Source: Granulosicoccus antarcticus IMCC3135 (GTDB taxonomy: Bacteria; Pseudomonadota; Gammaproteobacteria; Granulosicoccales; Granulosicoccaceae). Taken from it: DNA of 64,000 bases. The position numbers were made by a program, and so were the translations under genes. Positions 500 to 23,859 of this stretch are shown piece by piece (position 1 is the stretch's first letter; each line of letters starts with the position of its first letter). The stretch covers positions 3,096,501 to 3,160,500 of the forward strand of contig NZ_CP018632.1 of assembly GCF_002215215.1 (NCBI RefSeq). The letters are read 5' to 3'. Under the pieces are notes generated by a model that searched no databases, was not told the origin of the DNA, and saw only the letters and a program-made list of their open reading frames with translations.

Positions 500-1738
500 T
501 TAACCAAGAAGCCTGTCTGCCAAGTCCATGCAATGATAGCGCCTGTTATTACAAAGACCCTTTTTTATCAGGCGCAGATTGAACAAACGAATCGCGGTAA
601 GAACGGTTGGGTCTTTCAGTAGTTGGCAAGCTGCTTCATATCCCTGGACCTCCAGGTGAACCTGGTCAGAGCCCCCTGTTTCATATAGATAATTGCCCAT
701 TTGCAAGCTCCGGTGCTTTCTCTTCAGCGAGTCAAGTGACTTTCCGTGTTCAAGTTCCAGAGGCGAGCGAGCCAGGTGAAAACTAAACCACAAGACATTA
801 TCCTCATTGATCACCGTCAAGACTTCTTGCCAATAAACATTGATTCTTGAGTAAACGGTGACGTGCTTAGTGCTATATGTGGGTAGGCAGGAGCAGCTCC
901 AGAATGAGTATTCACTTTCTATCGGAACAGGCAAGCCCAGCTGCACATATCGTCGCAAGAATTCGGTTGACTCTTCTGCATAAGGCTTGGAGGCGAGTGT
1001 CTTGAATCTCTTCTGGTATTTCTGACGAAGAGTTTCGTCTTGGATTCTTGTACCTGTTAGCAGAGGGGCGTCATGTGTCTGAACCCATTCATCCTGTTCA
1101 GCTAATGGCATCACCAAATCAAAATCTGACACGCCTTTGGGAATGCTGGTCAGGGCAATGTTTCGCAATGTGAAGTCTTGGTCTTCCAGGCCACTGATGA
1201 CTGCCTTCTCTTCAGCGCTGAGTCTTGATTTTGGTACACGCTTGAAGCTGATATGACTGATGTCATTATGAATTATGCGATGTTGTACATAGCGTCGGGT
1301 GACATCTGTCGACTTGCCTGCATAAACTTCACCGTTGAGAAATCTCAGTACGTATATTCCGCATCGATTCTTTTTTCCGTAAATACCAGCTATCGATGCT
1401 CGTCCTTCAACATGACGGGCTCTGGGAAAGTAATAGCGTTCCTTCAGAAACGATTCCAGCTCCTGCATGAGTGGGTGTTCCGGTTGTCCATGAATCGGAG
1501 GGTGTGTACTTCTGGCTATTTTGAAAGCATACTCGCCTTTTGAGCAGTCGGATGCGTAAACCCGTCCCGCCAGTTGAGGTTTGTCCACAAGGACATTGTG
1601 ATACGGATGCGGCCAGATGTGTTCCCGATTCCAGTAATCGGACTTGTTTTGATCGCTTCCGGATGCTGGGTGGTTCTTATCAACGGGTGCTTGGTGTACA
1701 CCAGTTGTGTCATGTTGTTCATTGTTTGGGCAGCGCAA
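500..1738 (-). CDS. GIY-YIG nuclease domain protein
   Basis: The 412-aa product has a GIY-YIG nuclease core: GIY at residues 127-129 and a YAG variant of the second motif at 139-141, followed by arginines at 148-149. The region before it (about 40-110) and the long C-terminal half match nothing I recognise. GIY-YIG enzymes cut DNA with a single metal ion. In restriction and mobile elements they often supply the cleavage activity. The gene is transcribed away from the plus-strand membrane cassette that begins about 500 bp beyond its start, so it may belong to the same island without sharing the operon. I took the first ATG; the N-terminal 40 residues are low in recognisable structure, so a later start is possible. 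An endonuclease role in defence is inference. Confidence 0.65.
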   Translation of the reverse strand: MRCPNNEQHDTTGVHQAPVDKNHPASGSDQNKSDYWNREHIWPHPYHNVLVDKPQLAGRVYASDCSKGEYAFKIARSTHPPIHGQPEHPLMQELESFLKERYYFPRARHVEGRASIAGIYGKKNRCGIYVLRFLNGEVYAGKSTDVTRRYVQHRIIHNDISHISFKRVPKSRLSAEEKAVISGLEDQDFTLRNIALTSIPKGVSDFDLVMPLAEQDEWVQTHDAPLLTGTRIQDETLRQKYQKRFKTLASKPYAEESTEFLRRYVQLGLPVPIESEYSFWSCSCLPTYSTKHVTVYSRINVYWQEVLTVINEDNVLWFSFHLARSPLELEHGKSLDSLKRKHRSLQMGNYLYETGGSDQVHLEVQGYEAACQLLKDPTVLTAIRLFNLRLIKKGLCNNRRYHCMDLADRLLG

Positions 1739-2241
1739 GAAATGATGTCCCAGGAATGGCCGTTTTTGATTGTTCGATTACCAGCAATTTGCTCATGATG
1801 TTTTGCCTGCAGTTTCGGCCGTTCGGCTATCGAGTTGTCCAACGAGTGCTTGACGCAGCCTTGCAGCAGCCTTCGACATACAAAAGTGGCAGCTATCAGC
1901 AGTAGAGCGAACTCTATTTCTACATAAATTATCCGCAAGGAATTCGTCGCTCAAAATTTCGTGTGGCAATGAGTCCATCGTCCATCGTAGTGCGTTATAT
2001 TAGATGGTTCTGCTAGACCAGTAGACCTTGGGAATAATACCAACGCTGTTGATTGCCCGGCTTTAGGTACTTGTAATATGAGCATGATCTGGTGGAAAAT
2101 CACTGGTTCTGTATGACCTGGTCTGGTGAGTTTGAAGTTGGCTTGCCTCTGAATCAAGGTAGTCTGCAGTTCTAAGCGTAACCGCTCCCAGGCAGCTGGG
2201 GTGGTTTTAAGGAATCGTTCACCAAAGGATGGAAGGGCACT
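1739..2241. other. Intergenic region before the membrane-helicase cassette
   Basis: About 500 bases between the divergent GIY-YIG gene and the cassette. Short frames on both strands show no recognisable protein. It should hold promoters for both directions; the only candidate I can point to is listed separately. Confidence 0.4.
2049..2077 (+). promoter_or_regulatory. Possible sigma70-type promoter
   Basis: TTGATT (2049-2054) and TGTAAT (2072-2077) are separated by 17 bases, resembling -35 and -10 boxes. They lie about 165 bases before the first cassette gene. This is pattern matching only. Confidence 0.25.
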
Positions 2242-3663
2242 TTGCTAGGTACAATCAAAAAACTATGGAAACGGATTTTTCCCCCGCTTGGTGTGTCACA
2301 TGGTTCCGCTCCTTTTCCAGATATCGATAAAGATAGTCTCAGGCGTGAGTTGGAAGTCGTTGAGAAAGCAAAGGAGGAGGGGGTCAAGAACCTTCCTGAC
2401 AGCCACAGTGTCAGAGCTGCAAGCTACGAACAGACTATTGTCCAGGGTATCAGTAAGATTGCCAGCGACACCAGCCAGAAACTGACAGCGGTTTTGAAAT
2501 CACATGCGCAAACTGCCCAGCTAACCCCCGTACAGTTTGATCGAATAGCATTGAAGAATGCGGTTGTATCATACAAGACGGATGTCGAGGGGATTTTGGT
2601 CGGAGCTACTCCAGAAATTAATGCGAGTATGAGGCGCCTTGCTCAGCGTGAAACAGAGCTGAGTCGCTTCAGGAAGACACATGGTTTGCGACGACATGCC
2701 GAATATCCGGATAGCTCTCTGTTAACCTGGGCTGTTCTCGCAGCCATCATGGTGCTGGAATCCTTATTGAACGGTTATTTCTTTGCTCAAGGCTCCGCAA
2801 GTGGAATGCTTGGCGGCTTTGGACAGGCAGCAATGATCTCATTGGTTAATGTCTTATTGGCTGCAGCTGTTGCACTGCTGCCAGCACGACTTATACCGCA
2901 CAAAAATATTATTCTGAAGTTGGTAGGTGTGTTGGTTACTGCTGCATATTTCGTTGTGCTCGTAGTCGTACTTCTATTTCTGACCCAGTATCGTGATGCC
3001 TTCACCGCCGATCCTGACAAAGCGCTTCAGGTTGCTTTTCAGAATATTGAGGCTGGCAACTGGAAGCCAAGTGATATCAACTCCTATCTCTTCTTTGCGT
3101 TGACACTCTTGTTTGCTATCGGTGCTTTTGTGAAGGTTTTGTATTCAGATGACAGATATCTGGGATATGGCCGGATGACACGCAAAGTTGTGGCAGCCGA
3201 AGAACTGATCGCGGGCTATCAAGATGATCTTTCCAGTGCTATTCAACGAGAGAAGGATCTATGCCGTGAAAAAATTGAAGAGTTTGGTGAGAAAATCGAA
3301 TTCAACGTCAATAGCATTCATGATGCTGTGAAATCCCATAATAGGTTGTTATCACATTGGGAAAATTTCGGACAACATCTGGTTGCTTGCCATGATGCGC
3401 TTGTTGCCGACTATCGAATCGCTAACCGCAACGCTCGTAGTGATACTCCGCCAGATTGGTTCAAGGAAATCACACCTTTCGATATGGCTGCTTATCAACC
3501 GCAAGTTCAGGAATGCAGTTTGCCAGACGGGTTGCCAGAACACTTAGAGGAATACAAAGACTTTGAGGCTCGAGCGATTGAAGTTCTTAGTAAGACTCAT
3601 AACAATATGATTGAAGAAATGCATGCTCTTTTGTCACTTGATAATTATGGGAAAGTGTCATGA
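2242..3663 (+). CDS. Four-TM coiled-coil membrane protein of defence cassette
   Basis: First gene of the cassette, 473 aa, starting at TTG with GGAAGGG four bases upstream. The N-terminal 150 residues are polar and helical. Four hydrophobic segments follow at about 160-182, 194-216, 223-248 and 281-300, then a charged helical C-terminal region of about 170 residues. I recognise no family. The layout suggests an inner-membrane protein with two cytoplasmic helical domains around a four-helix core. The stop overlaps the start of the next gene (ATGA at 3660-3663), implying translational coupling and a shared complex. Its place ahead of a MotA/ExbB-like and MotB-like pair suggests an accessory subunit of that channel, which is inference. 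Confidence 0.75.
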   Translation: MLGTIKKLWKRIFPPLGVSHGSAPFPDIDKDSLRRELEVVEKAKEEGVKNLPDSHSVRAASYEQTIVQGISKIASDTSQKLTAVLKSHAQTAQLTPVQFDRIALKNAVVSYKTDVEGILVGATPEINASMRRLAQRETELSRFRKTHGLRRHAEYPDSSLLTWAVLAAIMVLESLLNGYFFAQGSASGMLGGFGQAAMISLVNVLLAAAVALLPARLIPHKNIILKLVGVLVTAAYFVVLVVVLLFLTQYRDAFTADPDKALQVAFQNIEAGNWKPSDINSYLFFALTLLFAIGAFVKVLYSDDRYLGYGRMTRKVVAAEELIAGYQDDLSSAIQREKDLCREKIEEFGEKIEFNVNSIHDAVKSHNRLLSHWENFGQHLVACHDALVADYRIANRNARSDTPPDWFKEITPFDMAAYQPQVQECSLPDGLPEHLEEYKDFEARAIEVLSKTHNNMIEEMHALLSLDNYGKVS

Positions 3664-4475
3664 GCGTACTGAGAAAAAAGTCCAAGGCTAAGAATGATCG
3701 TTTAGGTGTCTGGATCTTTGCAGTACTGGGAGTTGTTGGCTCAGCAGTAGCGGCTTTTCTTTGGTGGAATACTCAGAGCCAGGTCAAGTACGATGATGCT
3801 ACGGGTTGCCCAGCTACCGGGCCTTCCGCAAAAATGGTATTTCTGATTGATACCAGTGACCAGATCAGTCCGTTACAGCGACTTGATCTACGAAAACAGA
3901 TTGACAAGTACATTGAATCCGCGCCGACTTACGCCAAAATAGTTATCTATAGTCTGGTGCCGGACGAAGAGACCCATGTTGAAAAGGTATTTGATAGCTG
4001 TAAGCCGCGTGATGGAACCGCTGCGAACGCTCTGACCGAAAACGAGCGAATTCTCAAAAATGGGTGGCGTGAGAAATTTGCAGAGCCAATTAAAATCATT
4101 CTCAGTGACGCATTGGTGACGAAAAATTCTGATGAATCACCAATACTGGAAGCGCTTCAATACGTTTCAGTTGCTCAGATGGATGATTCTGATCTGGCTG
4201 GAGACGTTCAGCTAATCATTGGCTCTGATATGTTGCAAAACATGCCAGAGTACAGTCACTACCGTGATTCGCAAGATTTCAGCTTCTATGTCGAGCTTCC
4301 TTATAGTCAAAAGACAGCTCTTTCTTTACCGCCAATAGACGTCAAGCTGCTCTACATTGCCCGTACAGGCTACGAAACTGTGCAAAGCAGGAAACATGTG
4401 CTCTTCTGGGAGCAGTACTTTGCAAATGCCGGGGCGATGATCGACTCGGTAAAGATACTCCCAGCTGGCGGATAA
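3660..4475 (+). CDS. Membrane-anchored vWA-like protein of defence cassette
   Basis: A 271-aa protein with one N-terminal transmembrane segment at about 15-36 and a soluble domain of about 200 residues. The domain opens with a hydrophobic strand ending in D64-T-S66, like the first MIDAS strand of von Willebrand A domains. The rest of the DxSxS motif reads DTSDQ, so metal binding is uncertain. Later alternating strands (around KIVIYSLV and DVQLIIGSD) fit an alpha/beta Rossmann-like fold. The start overlaps the preceding stop by four bases and the next gene begins one base after this stop, so the three genes are tightly coupled. vWA domains usually mediate protein-protein contacts, here perhaps with the channel proteins. 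The family call is moderate. Confidence 0.7.
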   Translation: MSVLRKKSKAKNDRLGVWIFAVLGVVGSAVAAFLWWNTQSQVKYDDATGCPATGPSAKMVFLIDTSDQISPLQRLDLRKQIDKYIESAPTYAKIVIYSLVPDEETHVEKVFDSCKPRDGTAANALTENERILKNGWREKFAEPIKIILSDALVTKNSDESPILEALQYVSVAQMDDSDLAGDVQLIIGSDMLQNMPEYSHYRDSQDFSFYVELPYSQKTALSLPPIDVKLLYIARTGYETVQSRKHVLFWEQYFANAGAMIDSVKILPAGG

Positions 4476-4476
4476 C

Positions 4477-5676
4477 ATGGCAGATAGCTCGAGAAAGAAA
4501 GCTGTGAGGAGTGATATGGAAGACGCAAGGTCAATGGATCTGGCCAGAATCTTCCTCACGATATTTATACTCGGCTCACTTGTTGTTGCAGCCCCACTGC
4601 TCTTCCCATCCTTTGGTGTAAATCCATTGCTGAAGACTCTGGGTACGGTTATACCGATTGTTTTGATGGTCATTTTCATGAGAATCGGCAGGCACCGTGT
4701 GGAGGAGCAAGGATCTGTTGAAATAGAGCAGGTGGCTGATAGCTTGTACTTCATGGGCTTTATGTTCACGCTCGTTGCACTGCTGGTAGCGTTGCGTCAG
4801 ATCAGTTTTCCAGTTGACATGAGTGCAATCACATCTCGTTTTGGTATTGCCATGATCACCACGTTGGTTGGTTTACTGTTAAAGGTACTGTTGACTCAGT
4901 TCAAGCAGGTAGGCGGTGTTTCGCAGCGCCAGGCGCAAAACGATTTGCTTCGAGCCACAATACGTTTCACCAGAGCGCTGGACAGGAGTTCGGCTAATGT
5001 TGAAAAAACTGTCAACGACGCTGCTGCCAAAATGTTGGCTTTGGCGGAAGCCTCAATAACGGATATGACCGACTATGCGAAGAGTGCACAGGAGTCTGTA
5101 GCTGTTCAGGGAAAGTCTGCACTAAAACAAATGTCTGCACAAAGCAAGTCAGATATAGAAATGCTGGCAGCCTATTCCAAGTCGAACATTGAGGGAATAG
5201 TGGGTCAAGGGAAGGCAGGTATCGAGATGATGTCACGTCATAGTAAGGAGGCACAGATTCAAATGCTGGGTGATTCAGAGGCGGCATCAAAGGCTTTAGC
5301 GGAGGTTTCCAAGTCTAGTTCAGTTGCGAACAGTGAGTATATCACCCGGTTGAATATGCACTTGAGTGGTTTGCAGGGTGTGGTAGAAAAAACGAGTGAA
5401 CGCTTTGATGATTTAAGTAGCACTGTTGATGGTTCAATTCAGAAGCACAGTTTAGCTCTCGAACCGCTTGAGCGATTTGGGAGCTTTTTGGCAGGCAATA
5501 ACGATCTATTGTCAGACTTCCAGGGCACGTTGACGAGTGTTGTTGCTACAGGGAGTTTTCTCAACGAGAGTGTTGAGCGTTTGGAGGGTGCGGTTACTCA
5601 GTTACAAGGAAGTTTGAGTAATGCAGCGAGAGTTAACTCCTATATTCATCTTGGAGATGACGCAGATCAGTCATGA
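4477..5676 (+). CDS. MotA/ExbB/ZorA-like channel protein
   Basis: This 399-aa protein has four hydrophobic segments, at about 23-43, 51-70, 88-108 and 118-140. The last two match the MotA/TolQ/ExbB signature: a FMGFMFTLVALLVALR helix and a FGIAMITTLVGLL helix, which line the proton path in that superfamily. From residue 150 to the end runs a long helical tail with repeated K-S/x-I-E-M-type heptads. Long cytoplasmic tails are characteristic of ZorA in Zorya anti-phage systems, where the motor spans the inner membrane and a tail projects inward. Together with the next gene it should form an ion-driven stator-like complex. Overall identity to true ZorA could not be tested here, so ZorA-like is a structural inference. 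Confidence 0.75.
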   Translation: MADSSRKKAVRSDMEDARSMDLARIFLTIFILGSLVVAAPLLFPSFGVNPLLKTLGTVIPIVLMVIFMRIGRHRVEEQGSVEIEQVADSLYFMGFMFTLVALLVALRQISFPVDMSAITSRFGIAMITTLVGLLLKVLLTQFKQVGGVSQRQAQNDLLRATIRFTRALDRSSANVEKTVNDAAAKMLALAEASITDMTDYAKSAQESVAVQGKSALKQMSAQSKSDIEMLAAYSKSNIEGIVGQGKAGIEMMSRHSKEAQIQMLGDSEAASKALAEVSKSSSVANSEYITRLNMHLSGLQGVVEKTSERFDDLSSTVDGSIQKHSLALEPLERFGSFLAGNNDLLSDFQGTLTSVVATGSFLNESVERLEGAVTQLQGSLSNAARVNSYIHLGDDADQS

Positions 5677-5730
5677 TTTCAAGCTGTTGCAAAAAGACTC
5701 GAGGTAGATTCGTCGCAACCTGGAAAGATA

Positions 5731-5844
5731 ATGGGTATGGCCATTGTATTGCGCATTAATGGCATATTCGCTGAGATGAATATGTCAATACAACTAGATA
5801 GTACTGTCTCTGTTAACATGTTTGAGCTGCCACCACATGATTGA
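5731..5844 (+). CDS. Possible small ORF before the MotB-like gene
   Basis: A 37-aa frame begins at ATG with GGAAAG just upstream. Its stop overlaps the ATG at 5837, the preferred start of the next gene. It fills most of the 160-base gap between the channel gene and its partner. No homology is recognised; it may be a translational-coupling leader or chance. Confidence 0.2.
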   Translation: MGMAIVLRINGIFAEMNMSIQLDSTVSVNMFELPPHD

Positions 5845-6766
5845 TGCAGCAGAGCGGCGTTCATTTCTGTTTGGCATAACACTGACGGAAATTTTGGTTC
5901 TCTTTGTTTTTTTGCTTGCATTGTTGATTGGAGGCAATATGGAAAATAGACAAGCCGAAGCCTCAGCTAGGAAAAATTTGCCTGAGAAAGTCTTTGATCT
6001 GCAGGAAGAGCTGGTTGGTACACGCCAGAGAATGTTCGATACTGGCGAGCAAATGACGTTGCTGAAAAGTCAGTATCAGCAGATTGTAGATGAGAATGCG
6101 GCTCTCAAGGATATGGTCAAATCAGAGTCAGCTATACAGAAAAACCCTGAGCATGAGGCAGTGTTATCGGCTTTGACCCCACTGTTGAATCCAGAAACTG
6201 TCGAATTCTTGAAGGAGGTGACGGATACACTGAGGCAAGATTTGGGCGTGGAGTCTCTTGCAGAAAAGACTGATCTCTTGTCGGATTTACTGGACGCTAG
6301 TAAATCGAAAGTAGAAGCATGTACGGGTCTACTGTCTGAGGATAATCAGAATTTTGGTGAGTTTGAGATGGATATTCAGGAATGTACTGGAAGACTTCGG
6401 TATTTTGAAAGAACGTATGCTGAAGGTATTAGCGATGTTCCTCCACCTTGCTGGATATCCGTGAGTGGTAGATCTGAGAGTCTATTCTTTGTGAATATTG
6501 ACACAGAGGGGTTTGAGGTAGGCAAAGCCTGGGCGCCAGGTCGTCAAGAGGATGCTGCACAGGTCGTGGGCGCTTTGCCGATGATCGGGAAAAAGCTCGA
6601 TTCCCAGCAATTCCTTGCAGCCACAGAAGGTTTGTTTGAGCAGTCTCGGCAGCTAAAGTGCCGGCACGTAGTTGACGTGTATGACAAGATTGATAAGGAC
6701 AAAGAGTTATACAAGGCTCGAATGAAGATCATTGAGGCGAGGTTTTATAAGAACCTGCGAGGCTAA
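5837..6766 (+). CDS. MotB/ExbD/ZorB-like membrane protein
   Basis: I prefer the ATG at 5837 (309 aa); a TTG at 5822 is the alternative. A short basic N-terminus is followed by one transmembrane helix at about 10-35, then a coiled coil (about 45-105) and an extracytoplasmic C-terminal domain with a conserved-looking PPCW and CRHVVDVYD. One TM helix near the N-terminus followed by a periplasmic domain is the layout of MotB, ExbD and ZorB, the stator partner of MotA-like proteins. In those families an aspartate in the helix carries protons. Here the only acidic residue in the helix is Glu18, within LTEILVLF. I see no clear OmpA-type peptidoglycan motif, so the C-terminal domain may differ from canonical ZorB. 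Confidence 0.7.
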   Translation: MIDAAERRSFLFGITLTEILVLFVFLLALLIGGNMENRQAEASARKNLPEKVFDLQEELVGTRQRMFDTGEQMTLLKSQYQQIVDENAALKDMVKSESAIQKNPEHEAVLSALTPLLNPETVEFLKEVTDTLRQDLGVESLAEKTDLLSDLLDASKSKVEACTGLLSEDNQNFGEFEMDIQECTGRLRYFERTYAEGISDVPPPCWISVSGRSESLFFVNIDTEGFEVGKAWAPGRQEDAAQVVGALPMIGKKLDSQQFLAATEGLFEQSRQLKCRHVVDVYDKIDKDKELYKARMKIIEARFYKNLRG

Positions 6767-6965
6767 AATGGCAGGGCTTTGACTTGTTATTTGGCCGAAA
6801 TGTAGTAAAGCCAAATGCTCGTTGACGATCAATGGGTGACTTGTTTATGAAAACACGAGTCAAGGCATGGCCATGAACTATTCGACAGTGAGAGAGTGCA
6901 AGGTTAAACTCGGTTCTGTGAAATCACGAAGCTCCTGCAATGAGGCATGAGTCCTGAGAGCAAGT

Positions 6966-7193
6966 ATGAAGATGGGTATGGATATGGAACTGGTTATTAT
7001 CAAGCGAATAATTGACGTGCTTGATGGAGTCTTTGAAATCGTACCTAGACCTTCAATTTGCAAATACGTTACTAGATACTTTGCGCATAGTCTTTGGCTT
7101 CATATTTTGAACAACGCCCAGGAGCTAACAGACTCGTTGCCGGTCTCAACTCGAAGAACCGAGTCCATTCAGAATGTTGGAGTTCTGCAATGA
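6966..7193 (+). CDS. Possible small protein coupled to helicase gene
   Basis: A 75-aa frame (MKMGMDMELV start) with GAGAG a few bases before the ATG. It ends in a TGA overlapping the ATG at 7190 that I choose for the helicase (ATGA junction), the same coupling seen between other genes of the cassette. I recognise no domain. It lies in the only large gap of the cassette (6767-7189); the sequence before it (6767-6965) shows nothing clear. The alternative is that this region only carries an internal promoter. Confidence 0.3.
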   Translation: MKMGMDMELVIIKRIIDVLDGVFEIVPRPSICKYVTRYFAHSLWLHILNNAQELTDSLPVSTRRTESIQNVGVLQ

Positions 7194-10100
7194 ATAGCTC
7201 AGTTGAGATTACCTCGCTTGAGCGGGATCGCCTAAAAGGATTGTTTGCGTTCGGTCGTGGCCTTCTGGCCGCAAGCTCCAAGACGTTGACAGATATGCGA
7301 GCTCCCGGACTCGGTTGTTTTCTTGAATCTGAGCTATCAGAGCTCCGTGGTCTTAGCCTTGATCGTGAAGATGGAACTTGGTTAAAACTTGAGAGGCAGC
7401 AGCCTTCTCGACCGCCGAAGCCTGAGCAGTGTATTCGAGATTGGTTTGATGGAGGTATCGATGACCCTGTAAGCAAGCCCACACTAAAAACAGTATTGGT
7501 AATCGAAGTTCCTATAGAAGATGCATCGGATCTCTGTGAAGGTGGACTTGTCTCGATCGAAGATATTCACGAGCATGAAGTAAATGAGGTAACTGTTCGG
7601 CTCGCTATACGATTGGAGAATTTGCAAGAACTACTTGCGGAAATAAATGAATGGATTGCAACGGTTTGGGTAATATGGGCGGAAGATGAAAAAATAACAC
7701 GCGTATCTACTGCCGTATATGAGCAACTTTTTCGTCTTTATAATCAAATGCATGGAGGGACAGAGACGCCTCCTGAGTTGGTATGGGGTATGGGGATTGC
7801 AACTTGGCATCATGAGGGCGTCAGAATCAATAAACCTGTGCTCGAGCAACTAGTCGATCTGGAACTAGCCGATGACGGGGCGCTCCTGATTTCCCCGCGA
7901 GACGTTAATTTGGCATTGGATCTGCGACCGTTTCACGATATCGATTCCAATGCAGGTGCGCGAGCTCAAACGAATCTGGAAGAGCCCATGCGTGCGCTCG
8001 TGTCGAGTGAATCTGAGCCAATATCGCCGTTTGCTCCCGCGTATTGGGAGCCTTTGCTGGCACAGGCTGCCAGTTTACTTGCATCAGATGCGCGTTTCAT
8101 GAGTCGCGAGGAGCTGGGTGCAGGTGGGAATCTTGCTGGTTCCGGGGACTCGCTTGAAATAGTCTCCAGATGGGCGCTTTATGCTCGCCCGCGCACGACT
8201 GGAGCGCTAGAAGACGACCTCCGACGCCTTGGTGAAGAAGCCATGGATGCTTCCGGTGCTGTTGCCGAAGCGTTGTTTGGTTTCGTGCGTGATCCATCGT
8301 CGACAGTTGATGCTCCGGTCATGTCTCCGACAGTTCAGCGAATTGGTGGAGCGCAGACGAATGGCAATAATGATTGGGATGGTGAGGAAGGAGCCTCCGG
8401 GTCCGCTAGTCCAAAGGCTGTGCCACCAACTTATTTCTTTCCCCTGCCGTACAACGAAGAGCAGGGTCGCATTATTGATCAGCTTGAGAAACATCCTGTT
8501 GTCACAGTTACCGGGCCGCCGGGAACTGGTAAAACACATACGATTGCCAATATAGTTTCCCACTACATGTCTATTGGAAGACGTGTTTTGGTGACGGCAC
8601 GTACTGCGGAGGCGATCGCTGCTGTTCGAGAAAAACTACCTGAGGAACTAGCTGTATTAGTCATTGCATCGGTGGGATCAGATAGAGAGGGAACGCGGCA
8701 ACTGGAGGAGGCGGTCGAACGACTGTCTGATGAGGTTGTATCTCTTGATGAGGTGGCGGTGCGAGAAGAAGTTGATCGACTCGGAACAAACCTGCTCGCG
8801 ATAGATACCGAGGTTCAAGAGTTGGATTCAAAGCTTGCTGCAATAGCCAAGAAAAACCTTGATCCGCTGAAGTGGCAAGGTGATGAGCTGACGGCAATGG
8901 AGATTGTTGAACAGCTGAGGTTACATGCTCCTGAGCACGAATGGTTCGAAGACCGACCTAGCGTAATGGCGCCTTCGACCCTTGATGCTGTCGTAGAAGA
9001 AATTCGTCAAAGATTGCCTTCTATCGGTAATGATCTTGCTCATTTGGGAGTCGCGTTACCAGATTTGGCATTGTTGCCAAACGCCAAAATTCTAATAGAA
9101 CTACATACGAATGAGCAAGAAAGGCGAAAGCAGCCCGTTGTAGACCCAGCCTCCCAACCGACGATGGCGCTCGCTTCGGTTGATTCGGAGACGCAGGCCA
9201 GGCAAGTTCTGAAACTCCTTTGCGATGCTCAGGAGAGATTTTCCACTCTTACCCCATGGGTAGCAAATGCAATAGCGTATGGCTTAGACGCGCGTTGTCG
9301 TGGTGATAGAAGTAGTGATGTCATGTTGCCAGTGCTGGAGGCTAACCAGCGGCTTGAGGGCATTTCAGTGAGTGCATTGTTGTACGAGCTTGGTGAGACT
9401 ACGCAGGTAGAGTTCGAAGAGGCGATTGTCAAAGCCTGTAGAACCGGTAAGCCGTTATCGATGATACAACGCCTGTCAAACAAAGCACTCTCACAAACTA
9501 TTGAATCGATTCGATTGGAAGGGGCTGCGCCTACCAGTATCGATGATTGGAGAGATGTAAATAGCAGCTTACGAGCTGAAGCGATGCGACCCGATATTGA
9601 AGCTTTGTGGCGTGAGTCAGCGCATTACTTGTCTCTCCCGGCCTTACCTGAGTCGTTACCTGAAATGACTGGTATCGTCAGTGAATGTGCTAATTGGCAA
9701 GAAAGAATAGAGCGTGCTGCGGATAAGCTATTCACGGTTGTTGAAACGCTTGAATCGCTGTTTCCAGTGGGGCTCGATGTGCGTGGGAGATTTGCGGCAT
9801 TGGAGTTCGATACGCTGATTACGGCATTGGAAGCTAATCTAGGGAGGTCGACAGATCAGTCTTCGACTCTAGAGGAGTTCCTACACATGACGAAAAGTAC
9901 ATCAGGAGAGCTGGCAGAGCAACTGCAAATACTTTATGACATGATCGGCGAGGAGTCTGTTAGCGGCAATGATCTTGTTGTACAACGAAACCTGATTACT
10001 CACGAGGTTGCTCGGCTGAATGCTCTGCAACCTTCACTGGATAGGCTTGGTATCTTGCTAGACGCGCTTAGTAAGTCGGGTGCGTCTGTATGGACGAGCC

Positions 10101-12568
10101 GTCTAAAAGCTAACCCCGTAGAGGCTGAGGCTTTATTGCCAGGTAATTGGCGAGATAGTTGGGCTTGGGCAGAAATGACTGTTCGAATCGGTGAAATACT
10201 GTCACTAGGGAACGGCGATGATATTTTGGAGAAGAAGCGACTTTTAGCTGGTGACAGGCAGAAGCTGTTACGCAAGCTAATTCGTGCAAAAACACTGCTT
10301 GGTTTGAAGCCACGTATGAGCGATGAAGTGCGTTCGGCCCTGCATGCTTTTACCGCTGCCGTTCGTCGGCTTGGAAAAGGTACGGGGGCTAGTGCACCTA
10401 GATGGCGACGCGCCATGCGTGAGGAGGCCATGAAGGCTTCGGGTGCAGCCCCAGTTTGGATTATGCCTGAGTACAAAGTGTCCGAACAATTGCCTAGCGT
10501 GCCTTCTTCTTTCGACCTTGTTGTGCTTGATGAAGCGTCGCAATGCGATGTCACCTCACTTGCTTCACTAGCACGTGGTGCACGTTGTCTGATTGTTGGC
10601 GATGAGAAGCAAGTTAGTCCTTCATCAGTCGGCCTTCCTGTTCAGCGCATAGATACACTTCGAGCGGAATTTTTGTCATCTGTTCCTGCTCGAAATTTGA
10701 TTGACCAGGATACATCTATCTTCGATCTTGCAACGCAGATGTACCCTTCTAGCCACTTGATGTTGAAAGAGCACTTCCGTTGCGTGGAGCCTATTATCAG
10801 GTACTCATCTCGCTTCTATCAGGATAGGCTCGTGCCATTGCGAGTGCCGAAGGCATCTGAGCGTTTTGATCCTCCGCTTGTAGAGTTGCACGTGGCCGGG
10901 GCTTCTCGTGATGGTGTGACGAACTCGGCTGAGGCAGCTGTCATCGTCGATGAGATTGCAGCGATCGTACAAGACCCAAGTCATGCATGGCGGGGGATTG
11001 CTGTTATCTCGCTGCTCGGTCGAAAGCAGGCTGATCTCATTGAACGGCGTCTGATGGCGGATGAGCGAATTGGTACAGAGGCGATGAAGAGACATCGCAT
11101 TATATGCGGTGACGCTCGTACGCTTCAGGGACAGGAGCGTAGCGTTGTCTTTCTATCAATGGTAGCGGTTCCAGAATCCGTGCGTGCGCAAAGTAGCAAG
11201 GACATTCAACAGCGTATGAATGTAGCGATGAGTCGTGCATGTGATCGATTGTATCTTGCACGTTCTGTTTCAATGTCGGATTTGAAGCCCGGTGATATCA
11301 AAGCAGATGTGCTGAAGCATTTTCGTGATCCCATGCCGGAAGGGGGCTCCGCACGAGACAAAAGTGTAATCGAACTTTGCGAATCCGGTTTTGAACGTGA
11401 TGTTTGTCAACGTTTGATGGATGCGAACTATCGAACTCGAGCACAGGTGCGCGCAGGGCCGTTTAGAATCGATCTTGTGGTTGAGGGTGGGGATGATCGT
11501 CGGCTTGCTATTGAGCTAGATGGAGATCATTGGCACGGTCCAGATGTTTGGCATAGAGACATGCGTCGACAAGCCTCGCTTGAGAGGGCCGGGTGGACAT
11601 TCTGGCGTGTATTTGGGAGTCAATGGATTTCAAATAGGGATCATCATTGGAATGATCTTCTGGCAACGCTTGATAGGCTTGGTATACAGCCTATAGGGGC
11701 AAAAGCGAGCAATGAGGTGTTCAGCGAAACTCGACGATTTGTTGTAGATGGAGATAACGTAAGGCAGCGGGGAGTTGTCATAGATGATGACGTCGATATC
11801 GTTGATGACGTCGAAAAGTTGGAAGTTGTCGAGCCCATTGTGATATCTGATAGCGATTTTGACGTGATTGCCGAAGAAGCGCTTGACGACGAGTCCGCCG
11901 CTATTGATTCAAGTCTGGATGTTGTCGATGCTGCTCAAGAAACCGAGGGGCTGTTGGAAGCTGGTATTGGTTCTGAGAATATAAATACTGATAACCAGGT
12001 AAGCTCCGGTAATGATGAAGTGTTGGTAGAAGACGTTGCGAGGCCTACTGATGAAGATTCAGCATTCTATGACGACACCCATCGGCCAATTTTGCTAAAG
12101 AGGTTGTTGGAAATAGTAGATGCTGAAGGCCCGGTGGATAGAGAGCTATTAACTCGTAAAATTTCGGGAGAATATGGCTTCAAGCGTACAGGGAGTGTTA
12201 TTCGTGACACCGTACGGGATGCACTGGGTAGTCACCGTGCTATCACGGTGTGTACGGAAACCGAGCGCGAAACTATTTGGCCAGAAAATCAGTCACCGAC
12301 TGAAATAATTCCATGGGAATCAGGTGCGACAGGGAGTAGTGCCGATTGGGATCAACTTTGTGCTCCTGTCAGAGCCGGGCTGATTGCACATGTGCTCATT
12401 GATAGACCGCGGAATATTGGGCGCGCTGTACTCACTCTGATCGAACAGCGCAAATTGACTATGAAGTTAGCTTTAGAGATTGAAGCTTCTAGGGTCGTTG
12501 CGGAGCGTCATGTTGATCATTCTTCTATGGGTCCAGCGGTAGATTTATTTGATGGTATCGATGCCTAA
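7190..12568 (+). CDS. SF1 helicase fused to PD-(D/E)XK nuclease (Hhe-like)
   Basis: A 1792-aa protein from the ATG at 7190, which has GGAG seven bases upstream; a TTG at 7094 would add 32 residues. Superfamily 1 helicase motifs are clear: Walker A GPPGTGKT at 442, DEAS at about 1114, GDEKQ shortly after, then LKEHFRC, TLQGQE and NVAMSRA. They flank a long insertion of about 550 residues. After the helicase comes a DUF559/Vsr-like (REase_MTES_1575 type) nuclease fold with D1428 and E1442 in IELDGDHWH. An acidic linker (about 1510-1620) and a C-terminal helical domain like DUF3320 follow. This architecture resembles the DUF4011-helicase-Vsr proteins called Hhe, though the N-terminal 400 residues are not obviously DUF4011. 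It is probably the DNA-attacking effector of the membrane cassette; that pairing is inference. Confidence 0.85.
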   Translation: MNSSVEITSLERDRLKGLFAFGRGLLAASSKTLTDMRAPGLGCFLESELSELRGLSLDREDGTWLKLERQQPSRPPKPEQCIRDWFDGGIDDPVSKPTLKTVLVIEVPIEDASDLCEGGLVSIEDIHEHEVNEVTVRLAIRLENLQELLAEINEWIATVWVIWAEDEKITRVSTAVYEQLFRLYNQMHGGTETPPELVWGMGIATWHHEGVRINKPVLEQLVDLELADDGALLISPRDVNLALDLRPFHDIDSNAGARAQTNLEEPMRALVSSESEPISPFAPAYWEPLLAQAASLLASDARFMSREELGAGGNLAGSGDSLEIVSRWALYARPRTTGALEDDLRRLGEEAMDASGAVAEALFGFVRDPSSTVDAPVMSPTVQRIGGAQTNGNNDWDGEEGASGSASPKAVPPTYFFPLPYNEEQGRIIDQLEKHPVVTVTGPPGTGKTHTIANIVSHYMSIGRRVLVTARTAEAIAAVREKLPEELAVLVIASVGSDREGTRQLEEAVERLSDEVVSLDEVAVREEVDRLGTNLLAIDTEVQELDSKLAAIAKKNLDPLKWQGDELTAMEIVEQLRLHAPEHEWFEDRPSVMAPSTLDAVVEEIRQRLPSIGNDLAHLGVALPDLALLPNAKILIELHTNEQERRKQPVVDPASQPTMALASVDSETQARQVLKLLCDAQERFSTLTPWVANAIAYGLDARCRGDRSSDVMLPVLEANQRLEGISVSALLYELGETTQVEFEEAIVKACRTGKPLSMIQRLSNKALSQTIESIRLEGAAPTSIDDWRDVNSSLRAEAMRPDIEALWRESAHYLSLPALPESLPEMTGIVSECANWQERIERAADKLFTVVETLESLFPVGLDVRGRFAALEFDTLITALEANLGRSTDQSSTLEEFLHMTKSTSGELAEQLQILYDMIGEESVSGNDLVVQRNLITHEVARLNALQPSLDRLGILLDALSKSGASVWTSRLKANPVEAEALLPGNWRDSWAWAEMTVRIGEILSLGNGDDILEKKRLLAGDRQKLLRKLIRAKTLLGLKPRMSDEVRSALHAFTAAVRRLGKGTGASAPRWRRAMREEAMKASGAAPVWIMPEYKVSEQLPSVPSSFDLVVLDEASQCDVTSLASLARGARCLIVGDEKQVSPSSVGLPVQRIDTLRAEFLSSVPARNLIDQDTSIFDLATQMYPSSHLMLKEHFRCVEPIIRYSSRFYQDRLVPLRVPKASERFDPPLVELHVAGASRDGVTNSAEAAVIVDEIAAIVQDPSHAWRGIAVISLLGRKQADLIERRLMADERIGTEAMKRHRIICGDARTLQGQERSVVFLSMVAVPESVRAQSSKDIQQRMNVAMSRACDRLYLARSVSMSDLKPGDIKADVLKHFRDPMPEGGSARDKSVIELCESGFERDVCQRLMDANYRTRAQVRAGPFRIDLVVEGGDDRRLAIELDGDHWHGPDVWHRDMRRQASLERAGWTFWRVFGSQWISNRDHHWNDLLATLDRLGIQPIGAKASNEVFSETRRFVVDGDNVRQRGVVIDDDVDIVDDVEKLEVVEPIVISDSDFDVIAEEALDDESAAIDSSLDVVDAAQETEGLLEAGIGSENINTDNQVSSGNDEVLVEDVARPTDEDSAFYDDTHRPILLKRLLEIVDAEGPVDRELLTRKISGEYGFKRTGSVIRDTVRDALGSHRAITVCTETERETIWPENQSPTEIIPWESGATGSSADWDQLCAPVRAGLIAHVLIDRPRNIGRAVLTLIEQRKLTMKLALEIEASRVVAERHVDHSSMGPAVDLFDGIDA

Positions 12569-17100: not shown

Positions 17101-17420
17101 ACGCCGACCCCGAAGGTCAGCGCGTTGTAGAATTTCTCGTTGGCCGCCTTAAGCCCTTCGTTCATGGCCGGGGTAGCCAGCTCATGCACGATTTTGTCAA
17201 TGGCAGCCTCAGAGAGTGGCTGTTCCTTGCCCATGAAGGGGAAAGTCTTGCTTGCCAGTACCGAGCGCAGCACGGAGGGCAGAATCACCGATGAGCGGCT
17301 GCCGCGCATGGCCATGCAGACGTTGGGCGGGATAAACTGATAACCCAGTTGAGCAAGCAGCGCCAGCGCAGGAATCTTGGCACTGTGCTCTTCGTTGAAG
17401 TTAGCGATAGGGTCAGTCAC
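14151..17420 (-). CDS. hsdR: Type I restriction endonuclease R subunit
   Basis: This is the motor and nuclease subunit of the type I complex. The N-terminal PD-(D/E)XK domain shows PDIVCFVNG followed by VVIEAKRP. The SF2 translocase has Walker A TTGSGKS and a DEGH box (LIDEGHRSQ), and the GFDEPRNTVLYIDKPL and QAIARVNR motifs follow. HsdR translocates DNA using ATP and cleaves at a distance from unmethylated sites when bound to HsdM and HsdS. I place the start at GTG 17420, inside the overlap with the rhuM-like stop, because the protein then begins TDPIANFNEE; an upstream start at 17456 would add residues that run through that stop. About 1089 aa, full length for the family, with no lesion seen. 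Confidence 0.92.
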   Translation of the reverse strand: MTDPIANFNEEHSAKIPALALLAQLGYQFIPPNVCMAMRGSRSSVILPSVLRSVLASKTFPFMGKEQPLSEAAIDKIVHELATPAMNEGLKAANEKFYNALTFGVGVTEFVDGKKASPTIQIIDWTTPSENHFHFTEEMEVENAQGTGKRIPDIVCFVNGLPWVVIEAKRPDSSFSGKPTVDEGISQNIRNQKVDEIPHLFAYSQLLLSINGHEGKYATCGTSSTFWAKWKEEDIDEAEFLRLKNQTLTPTQLTALFDHRPPSARKEYETLTSGGQRIVTDQDRLLTSLLRPERLLDMTRLFTLFDKKAGRIVARYQQVFGINALLKRITTFDDKGARNGGVIWHTTGSGKSFTMVFLSKALIWLAELSQCRVVVVTDRVDLEKQLARNFVSGGAVLDKDRTEAMATTGKRLAEQIGKGNERIIFSIINKFGTAVNQPACYNDSADILVLIDEGHRSQSGENNIRMKQVLPRAAFVAFTGTPLLKDDKTENKFGTIIHSYTMQQAVQDGTVTPLLYEERIPELNTNDQAIDAWFDRITDELSDKQRTDLKRKFSSKGQIYQVEGRLELIAHDISDHFQNFKQQGLKGQLACDSKASAIAYKQLLDKIGKVTSVVAMSPPDTREGHDDIDTESKDKVQNWWKNTVGAQDEKRYTDDIIAAFAREDGPDLMIVVDKLLTGFDEPRNTVLYIDKPLKQHTLIQAIARVNRLHSKKQFGYLIDYRGILKELDATIEKYQDLAERTQEGFDIDDLKGLYNRMDTEYKKLPGLYSDLWAIFAAVKNRQDGPALRQVLSPRIETVDGQLTDLNLKQRHDFYDALTAFANCMKVALQSATYFDDKSFDDKRQLYKDTLKMMSQLRQQVREDAEETVDYDAYADSIRTLLDKHIGGVAINEPEGAYLVTDLGKDTNPETLSDDEARNRRDRITGRVTRKIEQELADDPYAQAYFSKLLQEAIAEAKEMFDAPVKQYLLFADFESQVEAREVDGLPTERFAELEPGVRRHVQAYYGLFLMQLGEPSPLSEDQCFEFSVKIDEVVRKSVAENSINPQEIENQIRVGLLPLLFQEIGVEKAQAIIAEVIQITRLGLSGYQS

Positions 17421-18453
17421 GGTTCTTCTCGTCGAGTAGGGCGCGTAGGGCAGCAATATTGGTTTGAGCGCCTTCGGCCTCTGTCAGGCGGCGGCGCTCC
17501 TCGGTATAGCGATCGAATTCAGATTTTGCCTTGTCGTCCGCCGCTTTTCTGGAAATGCTTCCCGCGTTCTCAAGCACGTCGCGATCATTGAAGCGCAGAA
17601 AGTCATCAAGCTTGCTTTGCCAGTCTTGCAAAAATACCTGCTTGCGTCGTAGAGTCTGATCTTCGGCAAAGTCTAGCCACATGGTCACGATACGATTCAG
17701 GGCCGCAATTTCGGCCTCGTTCAGATAGTTCTTGTCAATGGTTACATCCGTCTTGCGAATATCCTCATTCTTGAAACTGGTCAGTCCCATATCAGGCTTG
17801 TCGGCATCCACACGCTGAGCGATGAGTTCGGCAGCCGTCAGACCAGTACTGGCAAAATGCAGTTTGTTCTGAATGATCTGAAAGAAGCGAGTGGTGTCCT
17901 TGTTGCTCGGCGTGTAGTCCGCAGCGAGGGTGAAGATGTCTTTGACGCGCAGATAGACCCGACGTTCGCTGGCACGAATATCACGAATGCGTTCGAGCAT
18001 TTCGTCGAAGTAATCGGGCACCGCGGAATGACCAACGGGCGGATTCTTCAGGCGCTCGTCATCCATGACGAAGCCTTTGACGAGGTATTCTTCCAAGGTA
18101 CTGGTGGCCCAGCGGCGGAACTGGGTGCCGCGTGAGGAGCGTACCCGGTAGCCTACTGCCAGGATGACGGGCAGGCTGTAGTGGCTAACCTGCCGTTTTA
18201 CCTGCCTTTTGCCTTCGGTTTGAACTTGTAAGTAATTCTTACAAGTTGCAGCTTCGACCAACTCATCTTCATCGTAGACCGCACGAATGTGCTGGGTAAT
18301 GGCTTGTGGGGTGACGCCGTAGAGCTGGGCAATCAGTGCTTGTGATAACCAGAGAGTGTCTGACTCAAAGCGACACTCCACCCGTACTTCACCATCCTTG
18401 CTTTGAAACAGGATGAATTCGCCAACGGGTGGGGTGTCGTTGGGGGAGGTCAT
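17413..18453 (-). CDS. RhuM family protein
   Basis: The 346-aa protein matches the RhuM family: an N-terminal winged-helix-like part with LWLSQALIAQLYGVTPQAITQHI, a central SHYSLPVILAVGYRVRS and RRWATSTLEEYL, then a helical C-terminal half. RhuM proteins take their name from a Salmonella pathogenicity island gene but in most genomes they sit in type I restriction operons. The function is unknown; DNA binding is suggested by the helix-turn-helix. Here the gene lies between hsdS and hsdR and overlaps hsdR by a few bases, so it is part of the operon. A regulatory or accessory role is inference. Confidence 0.85.
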   Translation of the reverse strand: MTSPNDTPPVGEFILFQSKDGEVRVECRFESDTLWLSQALIAQLYGVTPQAITQHIRAVYDEDELVEAATCKNYLQVQTEGKRQVKRQVSHYSLPVILAVGYRVRSSRGTQFRRWATSTLEEYLVKGFVMDDERLKNPPVGHSAVPDYFDEMLERIRDIRASERRVYLRVKDIFTLAADYTPSNKDTTRFFQIIQNKLHFASTGLTAAELIAQRVDADKPDMGLTSFKNEDIRKTDVTIDKNYLNEAEIAALNRIVTMWLDFAEDQTLRRKQVFLQDWQSKLDDFLRFNDRDVLENAGSISRKAADDKAKSEFDRYTEERRRLTEAEGAQTNIAALRALLDEKNRD

Positions 18454-22426: not shown

Positions 22427-23425
22427 ATGGCTAGTGCAAGCCAATTAAAGGCGTTGCTCGAATCGCACCTGAAAGGTGACGATGAGCGCTTCTATTCCGT
22501 GGCCATGCAAGTGGCCGCGCACGAAGCGAAGCGTGGGCATGGCAAACTCGCCGAAGAGTTGCGATCACTGGTTGATCGGACCAAGGAAGCACGAGGTGTT
22601 GAATCGCTGGAATCAGCGCAGGCGACGCCTATCAGCCGTCCACGAGGGGAGCTGGCAAATCTGCTGGCCGTGTCGTATCCGAAGGCTCGCATGGGCGATA
22701 TGGTATTGAGTGATGAACTGACCGTGCAGCTCAATCGTGTTGTTCGAGAACAACGACAAGCCTCCCGTATTCTCTCGCACGGCCTGACTCCTCGGCGAAA
22801 GCTACTGCTGATGGGACCACCCGGTACTGGCAAGACAATGACCGCTTCAGTGCTGGCAGGTGAGCTGGGGTTACCCCTGTTCCAAGTTCGCTTTGACGGT
22901 TTGATTACCAAATTCATGGGGGAGACAGCGGCCAAGTTACGGCAGATCTTCGATGCAACGGATCGAACCCGCGGTGTCTATTTCTTCGACGAATTCGATG
23001 CCATCGGTTCTCAGCGTGGTCCGGCCAATGACGTGGGTGAGGTTCGGCGCATTCTCAACAGCTTTCTGATGATGATTGAGCAGGACACTTCACACAGCCT
23101 TATCGTTGCGGCTACTAATCATCCTGAGATTCTGGATCACGCTCTGTTCCGTCGCTTTGATGATGTGCTGCACTATGACTTGCCGGACGAGGCTAATATC
23201 GCCTCAGTGCTCAAGTCACGCCTTGGGTCTATGGCTGCAAAAGGGGTGTCATGGAAGAGGCTGGCTACCTTAGCGCAGGGGCTAAGTTACGCAGAAGTGG
23301 TTCGCGCCAGTGATGAAGCCCTGAAAGTCGTTCTGATTGATGACCGTGAAGAGGTGTTGGAAAAAGACGTGAGGGATACCTTGGTAGAGCGGCAACGGAT
23401 AAAATCAAGACTCCAATCACGGTAA
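22427..23425 (+). CDS. AAA ATPase of ATPase-S8 peptidase pair
   Basis: The 332-aa protein is an AAA-family ATPase. Walker A GPPGTGKT begins at residue 130 and Walker B with the second acidic residue is in YFFDEFDAIG. Sensor-like AATNHPEILDHALFRRFDD and the arginine finger region follow. The first 100 residues are helical. ATPases of this type are usually encoded directly before a subtilisin-like S8 serine peptidase, a pair common in accessory islands, where the ATPase probably acts as regulator or unfoldase. Here the downstream partner is only a stub. It starts at ATG with GGGACAGG just upstream. It may therefore be an orphan that still folds but no longer has its protease. Confidence 0.85.
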   Translation: MASASQLKALLESHLKGDDERFYSVAMQVAAHEAKRGHGKLAEELRSLVDRTKEARGVESLESAQATPISRPRGELANLLAVSYPKARMGDMVLSDELTVQLNRVVREQRQASRILSHGLTPRRKLLLMGPPGTGKTMTASVLAGELGLPLFQVRFDGLITKFMGETAAKLRQIFDATDRTRGVYFFDEFDAIGSQRGPANDVGEVRRILNSFLMMIEQDTSHSLIVAATNHPEILDHALFRRFDDVLHYDLPDEANIASVLKSRLGSMAAKGVSWKRLATLAQGLSYAEVVRASDEALKVVLIDDREEVLEKDVRDTLVERQRIKSRLQSR

Positions 23426-23452
23426 CTCGAATCATGGAGATTCTCGAGTCGT

Positions 23453-23653
23453 ATGGCGACACAGGACGAGCGACGTAAACGGCATTTCATTCTCAGTGGT
23501 ACTTCTGAGGCAAGAGGATATAGGCCTCCAACAGGGGGCGGAGTGCGGTTACACGTTAGTACTTCGTTAGACCCATTCCCTCTGAGCGAGGGTTCTCGAC
23601 GTGCTATAGCTATGAATCGTATGAACTACGTTTCGGTGTCAAGCGACCTCTGA
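23453..23653 (+). pseudogene. S8 (subtilisin-like) peptidase N-terminal remnant
   Basis: A 66-codon frame starts 28 bases after the ATPase stop. It begins with a charged segment, then HFILSGTSEARGYRPPTGGG. Peptidases paired with this ATPase type commonly open with such a stretch, ending in a proline-glycine-rich linker. The rest of the protease, including any Asp-His-Ser catalytic motif, is missing. The remaining sequence up to the mcrB-like gene (23654-23859) shows no coding signal. I infer a deletion that removed nearly the whole peptidase; the match is from memory of the family. Confidence 0.45.
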
Positions 23654-23859
23654 TTCAACGGCGGACTTCCAGGCTCGAATCAAAAAAGCGGCACGGTAAT
23701 GAGGAGAAGCGTTCACAATCGGGGGAGGGTGATTCTGCGTGGTTACTGGGCGCGAGAAACCGCCACAAGGGCTCGCTCCATTACGGCACTAGTTGGTACC
23801 GGGTGTGCTGAGATCAAGCGCATGGTTGTTCAAATAAACTGGAATAATTGAAAATCCAC

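What the first reader, a model, noticed from the sequence alone, without database searches (positions are those of the whole stretch)
2242..12568. Zorya-like membrane motor joined to an SF1 helicase-nuclease, with two extra membrane proteins
Five plus-strand genes, three of them overlapping or nearly touching, encode a four-TM coiled-coil protein, an anchored vWA-like protein, a MotA/ExbB-like channel with a long tail, a MotB-like partner and a 1792-aa helicase with a DUF559-type nuclease. Established: Zorya types use ZorA/ZorB motors with effectors ZorC/D, ZorE or ZorF/G, and Hhe is a stand-alone helicase-nuclease. Neither includes the first two genes, and I know of no system with this combination. 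The defence-island setting supports an anti-phage role.
Basis: partly seen in the sequence, partly recalled or inferred. Interest (0 to 1): 0.88.

Follow-up and report, generated by a model that had tools for sequence, protein, structure and literature searches.

The report
Membrane motor module with periplasmic nuclease
Four of the five genes form a recurring bacterial membrane-motor module, related to the Zorya antiviral motor, which in several other bacteria is fused to or sits beside DNA-cutting enzymes predicted to work outside the inner membrane; the big helicase next door is probably only a neighbour.

Summary
The five genes are real, but probably not one system. Genes 1-4 (4-TM protein, anchored vWA protein, MotA/ZorA-like channel, MotB/ZorB-like partner) form a conserved module: 35 complete copies in one order among 48 loci scanned, on alphaproteobacterial plasmids and in Pseudomonadota genomes. 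The helicase looks separate: no module gene lies near seven relatives of it, and in a 398-genome sample no other genome has gene 1 and a close helicase.

The surprise is the partner. In three genomes the ZorB-like subunit is fused to a staphylococcal-type nuclease (SNase), in a fourth to an HNH (GmrSD_C) domain, beyond the TM and hence predicted periplasmic. Thirteen copies have a separate SNase gene within 1.3 kb. SNase lies at the module in 9 of 26 genomes, 0.11 expected; in the 12 genomes fetched after I noticed this, 2, of one genus, 0.04 expected. Relative L005 has an intact Endonuclease I gene beside gene 1; the window keeps a broken remnant. Fifteen of 35 copies showed no such nuclease.

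Best reading: Zorya-like motor with periplasmic nuclease against incoming DNA. Defence is untested.

The parts
2242..3663 (+). Gene 1 (P1): 473 aa, long N- and C-terminal helical parts around about four TM segments; defining protein of the module; no Pfam or NCBIfam family above cut-off
   Evidence: homologues in 10 of 397 other genomes of a phylum sample and 24 plasmid records
3660..4475 (+). Gene 2 (P2): N-terminal TM anchor plus vWA domain, predicted periplasmic; Cys50 and Cys114 invariant in the 58 aligned sequences
4477..5676 (+). Gene 3 (P3): MotA/TolQ/ZorA-like channel (four TM segments by eye) with long C-terminal coiled-coil tail
5837..6766 (+). Gene 4 (P4): MotB/ZorB-like partner; single TM with Glu18 invariant in 24 of 24 aligned; this copy has an alternative C-terminal domain and no OmpA match
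1538..1866 (-). Broken remnant of an Endonuclease I gene, divergent from gene 1: frame change and a missing middle part (residues 111-236 of the L005 protein have no match)
   Evidence: tblastn; intact gene at the same place in L005:6632-7405(-), PF04231 E 1.3e-35
518..1429 (-). GIY-YIG-like protein region; a relative also lies near the module in L005 (1231-2235)
   Evidence: 28% identity, E 1.6e-34; Pfam GIY-YIG E 0.005, under cut-off
7190..12568 (+). Gene 5 (P5): SF1 helicase with MTES_1575 nuclease and DUF3320; judged a neighbouring defence gene, not part of the module

Best explanation
Genes 1-4 encode a membrane complex built on a proton-motor-like pair (P3 channel, P4 partner reaching into the periplasm), with a 4-TM protein (P1) and an anchored periplasmic vWA protein (P2). 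Its effector is a nuclease on the periplasmic side: either fused to the far end of P4 or exported as a separate SNase or Endonuclease I. Envelope disturbance, as when a phage injects DNA, would be sensed through the wall-bound P4, the motor would act, and DNA crossing the periplasm would be cut; host DNA is spared because it is not there. Shown: the module, its order, the fusions, the SNase neighbourhood, conserved nuclease residues. Inferred: topology (from homology and hydrophobic segments), motor activity, activation, antiviral purpose. In this window the nuclease gene is broken, so this copy may be inactive, or use a nuclease encoded elsewhere, or another effector.
For: 35 complete four-gene modules (one a near-twin) in one order among the 48 loci scanned. 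P4 fused to SNase in L038, L056, L062 (PF00565 E 2.3e-13, 3.4e-13, 3.5e-5) and to GmrSD_C HNH in L037 (2.3e-11), each after an OmpA-like stretch (over the Pfam cut-off in L037 and L038, under it in L056 and L062). The L037 and L038 genomes are of one family and two genera, so the nuclease type differs at the same place. Thirteen copies (one the near-twin) have a separate SNase within 1.3 kb, on either side and strand. SNase at or in the module in 9 of 26 genomes (7 of 21 genera), counted by eye, against 0.11 expected for 56 SNase copies; in the 12 genomes fetched after the pattern was noticed, 2 against 0.04 expected. A hydrophobic stretch precedes the SNase domain in all 13 separate SNases (crude test). 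Arg, Glu, Arg columns of the active site are present in 16 of 16 aligned SNase domains (by eye; residue roles recalled). P4 matches PADLOC ZorB (PDLC00609 9 of 24, PDLC00641 4 of 24, best 1.7e-33). Defence genes beside some copies: PD-Lambda-1 in L016, GmrSD_N and McrBC-like genes (by eye) in L005, R-M in the window.
Against: No nuclease of the tested kinds was found beside 15 of 35 complete modules, although only SNase, EndoI, HNH and GmrSD profiles built from one to six sequences were used. The main SNase count was made partly on the loci in which I noticed the pattern; the 2 later cases are of one genus (by genus 1 case, P 0.04). Several copies lie among metabolic genes (L011, L015, L057, L115, L116), and enrichment of defence genes was not tested. 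Channel homology of P3 is weak (hhalign E 0.002 to ZorA, 0.009 to MotA, 0.025 to ExbB, against 0.017 to the unrelated P1, all at low probability) and its structure model failed (pLDDT 47). The window's own P4 has no OmpA, ZorB or nuclease match and its EndoI is broken. P1-P2 were found without P3-P4 in 10 loci (L129 is cut at the contig end), so part of the module has another life. No phage data.
Confidence: 0.55

Rival explanations
1. DNA processing rather than defence: the motor and exported nuclease handle DNA at the cell surface, for uptake, nutrient use, or control of conjugation and transformation.
For: SNases and Endonuclease I are often exported DNA degraders (recalled); many copies lie on plasmids; one P1-P2 pair stands before a TraG/VirD4-like gene (L042, by eye); several copies lie among metabolic genes.
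Against: Patchy presence (P1 in 10 of 397 other genomes; 15 of 385, and 24 of 397, in samples centred on a positive genome), ZorB relationship and defence genes beside some copies.
Confidence: 0.23
2. Envelope-maintenance motor of the Tol/Ton kind; nearby nucleases are incidental.
For: 15 of 35 modules lack a detected nuclease; some lie in ordinary chromosomal surroundings.
Against: Four fusions of P4 to nucleases of two types and SNase placement above chance are hard to explain as incidental; distribution is sparse, unlike a housekeeping system.
Confidence: 0.13
3. One reading: motor joined to the SF1 helicase-nuclease as cytosolic effector.
For: Same strand, helicase directly downstream in the window; a second, distant PDC-S37 helicase lies 3.1 kb downstream of a module in L033/L034; L005 has GmrSD_N in the downstream place, so a cytosolic effector slot is conceivable.
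Against: 423-bp gap holding a weak terminator-like site (1 found, 0.4 expected by shuffling) and a weak promoter-like site (1 found, 0.8 expected); no overlap of gene 1 and close helicase in other genomes of the sample; no module gene around seven helicase relatives.
Confidence: 0.09

Closest known systems
Zorya (ZorAB motor with ZorC/D, ZorE or ZorF/G)
   Same: MotA-like channel with long cytoplasmic tail plus MotB-like partner, with an OmpA domain in 7 of 10 aligned copies; P4 members match ZorB profiles; modular effectors (PMC11890865, passages read).
   Different: Two extra conserved proteins (P1, P2); no ZorC/D/E/F/G among the five window proteins; Glu where the known motors have Asp in the P4 TM (comparison recalled); nuclease predicted on the periplasmic side.
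SNIPE (membrane-bound DUF4041/GIY-YIG nuclease; PD-Lambda-1 by domain make-up, recalled)
   Same: Membrane-tethered nuclease cutting phage DNA during injection (PMC13190303, passages read); a PD-Lambda-1 gene stands beside a module in L016.
   Different: SNIPE is one protein with a cytoplasmic nuclease and no motor.
Hhe / PDC-S37 / ProA-type helicase-nucleases
   Same: Gene 5 lies nearest these (PDC-S37 E 1.3e-59; ProA 1.1e-67, far under the curated cut-off).
   Different: No evidence here that they need the motor; gene 5 does not reach the curated cut-offs of Hhe and ProA.
MotAB, TolQR, ExbBD
   Same: Motor-pair architecture.
   Different: No specific match; the window P3 is under the MotA_ExbB cut-off.

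Membership tests
Zorya | ZorA: MotA/ExbB-like channel with long C-terminal tail | tested here: inconclusive
   Architecture fits; the window P3 has no PADLOC hit; relative L035 P3 6.3e-5, mainly over the tail; MotA_ExbB 11 of 24 at E<=5
Zorya | ZorB: single TM with acidic residue and PG-binding OmpA domain | tested here: inconclusive
   Family: OmpA in 7 of 10, ZorB profiles up to 1.7e-33, GxTxxE in 35 of 35 complete copies. Window copy: no OmpA and no ZorB hit
Zorya | Effector ZorC/D, ZorE or ZorF/G | tested here: not met
   No such PADLOC family among the five window proteins; flanks of the other copies were not scanned for them
Hhe / ProA (gene 5) | Match over the curated family cut-off; DUF4011 domain for Hhe | tested here: not met
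   Hhe 132 bits against a cut-off of 2000, ProA 228.6 against 1500; no DUF4011 in Pfam at E<=1
vWA domain (gene 2) | vWA fold | tested here: met
vWA domain (gene 2) | Canonical MIDAS DxSxS | tested here: not met
   D64 x S/T D67; no conserved Ser at +4; S189-D190 invariant
Periplasmic-nuclease motor (this proposal) | Nuclease on the periplasmic side | not testable with these tools
   Inferred from TM and OmpA order in P4 and from hydrophobic N-termini of SNases

The most novel reading that the evidence does not exclude
A Zorya-related rotary motor whose effector faces outward: a nuclease carried on or beside the wall-anchored partner destroys phage or plasmid DNA while it crosses the periplasm, telling self from non-self by compartment alone, with interchangeable nucleases (SNase, HNH, Endonuclease I) and in some lineages a second, cytosolic effector downstream.
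Probability: 0.4. Interest if true: 0.92.

Novelty: new variant of a known kind. Interest (0 to 1): 0.73.

Why it matters
The Zorya effectors described in the paper passages read act in the cytosol. A motor with its nuclease on the other side of the membrane would be a different way to stop injected DNA and would let one ask directly what such motors do: sense, pull or activate. The module also gives a possible role to two protein families (P1, P2) with no named family in the libraries searched, and offers a ready test strain, Rhizobium johnstonii 3841, whose plasmid pRL11 carries the module with an SNase gene.

Tried and rejected
The five-gene reading was tested by neighbourhood and co-occurrence and lowered. 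A structure model of P3 from three sequences failed (pLDDT 47) and was not used. PDB sequence searches with P1-P4 profiles gave coiled-coil or chance matches (for P3 60 of 606 were listed). Single-sequence protein searches with P1 and P3 found two relatives each besides the window itself; plasmid tblastn found the distant ones. The window's P4 has no plasmid match and P1 no phage match. The L125 SNase is weak (7e-7 locally, not listed by Pfam in that genome) and is not among the 13. In one search the SNase alignment took wrong pieces for some proteins; it was redone. The chance estimates assume random placement and ignore clustering; two genera contribute two genomes each to the nine; the first 14 genomes are the set in which the pattern was noticed, and one search gives the later 12 apart. 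One search also grouped ABC-type ATPases in 7 loci (a common family, set aside) and the window helicase with the L033/L034 helicase. Literature searches for the combination found nothing describing it: 11 of 11 listed; 14 of 14; 15 of 18; 20 of 43; 15 of 180; none; 1; 15 of 104; none. Of these papers I saw listings only, except passages of PMC11890865, PMC12505986 and PMC13190303; the Nature Zorya structure paper is not held.

Full report
What is there. The five ORFs stand as described, in the 7.78-Mb single-contig genome G000. The genus is probably Granulosicoccus: the nearest relative L005 is an uncultured Granulosicoccus contig of 392,731 bases, and a contig of that length with the same match belongs to G012, listed as same genus. 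Genes 1-3 touch or overlap, gene 4 follows after 160 bp, and the helicase ATG comes 423 bp later. The island downstream holds type I R-M genes and an IetA-like gene.

The module. The closest relatives of P1 and P3 lie on only two other contigs. One of these, L005, shows the same four genes in order, followed by a GmrSD_N gene and not by the helicase. Plasmid tblastn then found P1 in 24 records, from Rhizobium, Sinorhizobium, Microvirga, Paracoccus and Tistrella, and P3 in 11; the eight records read all show P1-P2-P3-P4. Genome searches with a P1 profile found it in 10 of 397 other genomes of the phylum sample, 15 of 385 of the class of G388 and 24 of 397 of its order; the last two samples are centred on a positive genome, and the counts include P1 without the rest. 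Scanning 48 loci (47 plus the window; L130 extends L033, and L034 is a near-twin of L033) gave 35 complete modules, one cut by a contig end, ten P1-P2 pairs without P3-P4 (one, L129, at a contig end), one weak P1 alone, and the L033 extension. P2 has 277 homologues at E<=1e-3 among 7995 scored candidates.

What the proteins are. P2 is a membrane-anchored vWA protein with two invariant cysteines and no canonical MIDAS. P3 has the layout of a MotA/ZorA channel with a coiled-coil tail of very different lengths; MotA_ExbB is the Pfam family most often matched, in 11 of 24 channel parts, but weakly. P4 has one TM with the motif GxTxxE in 35 of 35 complete copies. Its periplasmic part is OmpA-like in 7 of 10 aligned members and matches ZorB profiles. 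The window, L005, L039 and L059 share another C-terminal domain (profile of the first two: E 1.9e-12 and 1.8e-9 to the last two; L061 by eye). P1 has no named family, apart from a coiled-coil match to the ZorA2 tail at E 0.0034.

The nuclease. Among recurring neighbours the SNase family stood out, in 11 of the first 31 loci. Reading the P4 sequences showed that it is also fused to P4: L038, L056 and L062 end in SNase and L037 ends in GmrSD_C HNH. The L037 and L038 genomes are of one family and two genera, so the nuclease type differs at the same point. Of 35 complete modules, 13 have a separate SNase within 1.3 kb and one more (L125) a weak one; three have fused SNase, one fused HNH, one an intact Endonuclease I and one (the window) its remnant; in 15 none was found. 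In the 26 genomes with complete modules (twin left out) there are 56 SNase copies; 9 genomes, 7 of 21 genera, have one within 3 kb of or inside the module, where 0.11 are expected by chance (the nine counted by eye). Since the pattern was noticed in part of this set, the 12 genomes fetched later were counted apart: 2, both of one genus, against 0.04 expected, P 0.0009, or 0.04 if counted as one event. The SNase domains keep the R, E and R columns of the active site in 16 of 16 (by eye; roles recalled), and the separate ones begin with signal-like hydrophobic stretches. Because fused P4 runs TM, coil, OmpA-like part, nuclease, the nuclease should be periplasmic. This is inference and not measured.

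The helicase. Gene 5 is an SF1 helicase with an MTES_1575 nuclease, nearest PDC-S37 in PADLOC and ProA in NCBIfam, far below the curated score of the latter. Relatives lie on 45 plasmid records. Of five read, four are annotated: beside BREX genes (L030), with a Wadjet-type DUF4194 gene some kilobases away (L032), a restriction enzyme gene (L029) and a GIY-YIG gene (L028); L031 has no annotation. Profiles of P1-P4 find nothing in these five stretches or in two shorter ones from other genomes. In the phylum sample two other genomes have it at E<=1e-60, neither with P1. It is therefore most likely a neighbour. The counter-hint is L033/L034, where a distant PDC-S37 helicase lies 3.1 kb from a module; UvrD-type helicases also lie 5-7 kb from the modules of L009 and L010.

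How it may work. In the published Zorya model the PG-bound ZorB senses wall damage and the ZorA tail recruits a cytosolic nuclease (PMC11890865, passages). Here the same kind of motor would sit with its nuclease on the outer face of the membrane. SNIPE shows that cutting phage DNA during injection protects cells, though its nuclease is cytoplasmic (PMC13190303, passages). I find the combination of motor and outward nuclease likely, the antiviral purpose probable but open, and DNA uptake or transfer control the main rival.

The window's copy. It has lost the Endonuclease I that L005 keeps at the same place. Two other places in the genome match Endonuclease I and one matches SNase, all far away. 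Whether the module still works here is unknown.

Noticed in passing
L040, L041, L042, L063, L064, L065, L126-L129: P1-P2 pairs found without the motor pair (L129 is cut at the contig end); in L042 the pair is followed by a TraG/VirD4-like gene, in L040/L041 it lies near tat-like genes, both judged by eye.
   Followed up: partly
L016:17911-19386: A PD-Lambda-1 (DUF4041) gene stands next to the SNase and module on a Sinorhizobium fredii plasmid, a known kind of anti-phage nuclease beside the proposed one.
   Followed up: partly
L008:352-2782: Another genome of the genus has a ZorA-like 558-aa protein (hhalign to ZorA E 6.4e-5) and a 233-aa single-TM partner, distinct from this module.
   Followed up: no
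window 22427-26241: IetA-like AAA gene (E 3.5e-75) followed by a 797-aa protein with a restriction-enzyme-like match in its C-terminal half.
   Followed up: no
window 17416-18453: PDC-S05 family gene inside the type I restriction-modification cluster (E 2.3e-160).
   Followed up: no
L038:13089-13511, L061:12939-15563: Cas2-like and Cas10-like proteins stand just downstream of two modules, judged by eye from their sequences.
   Followed up: no
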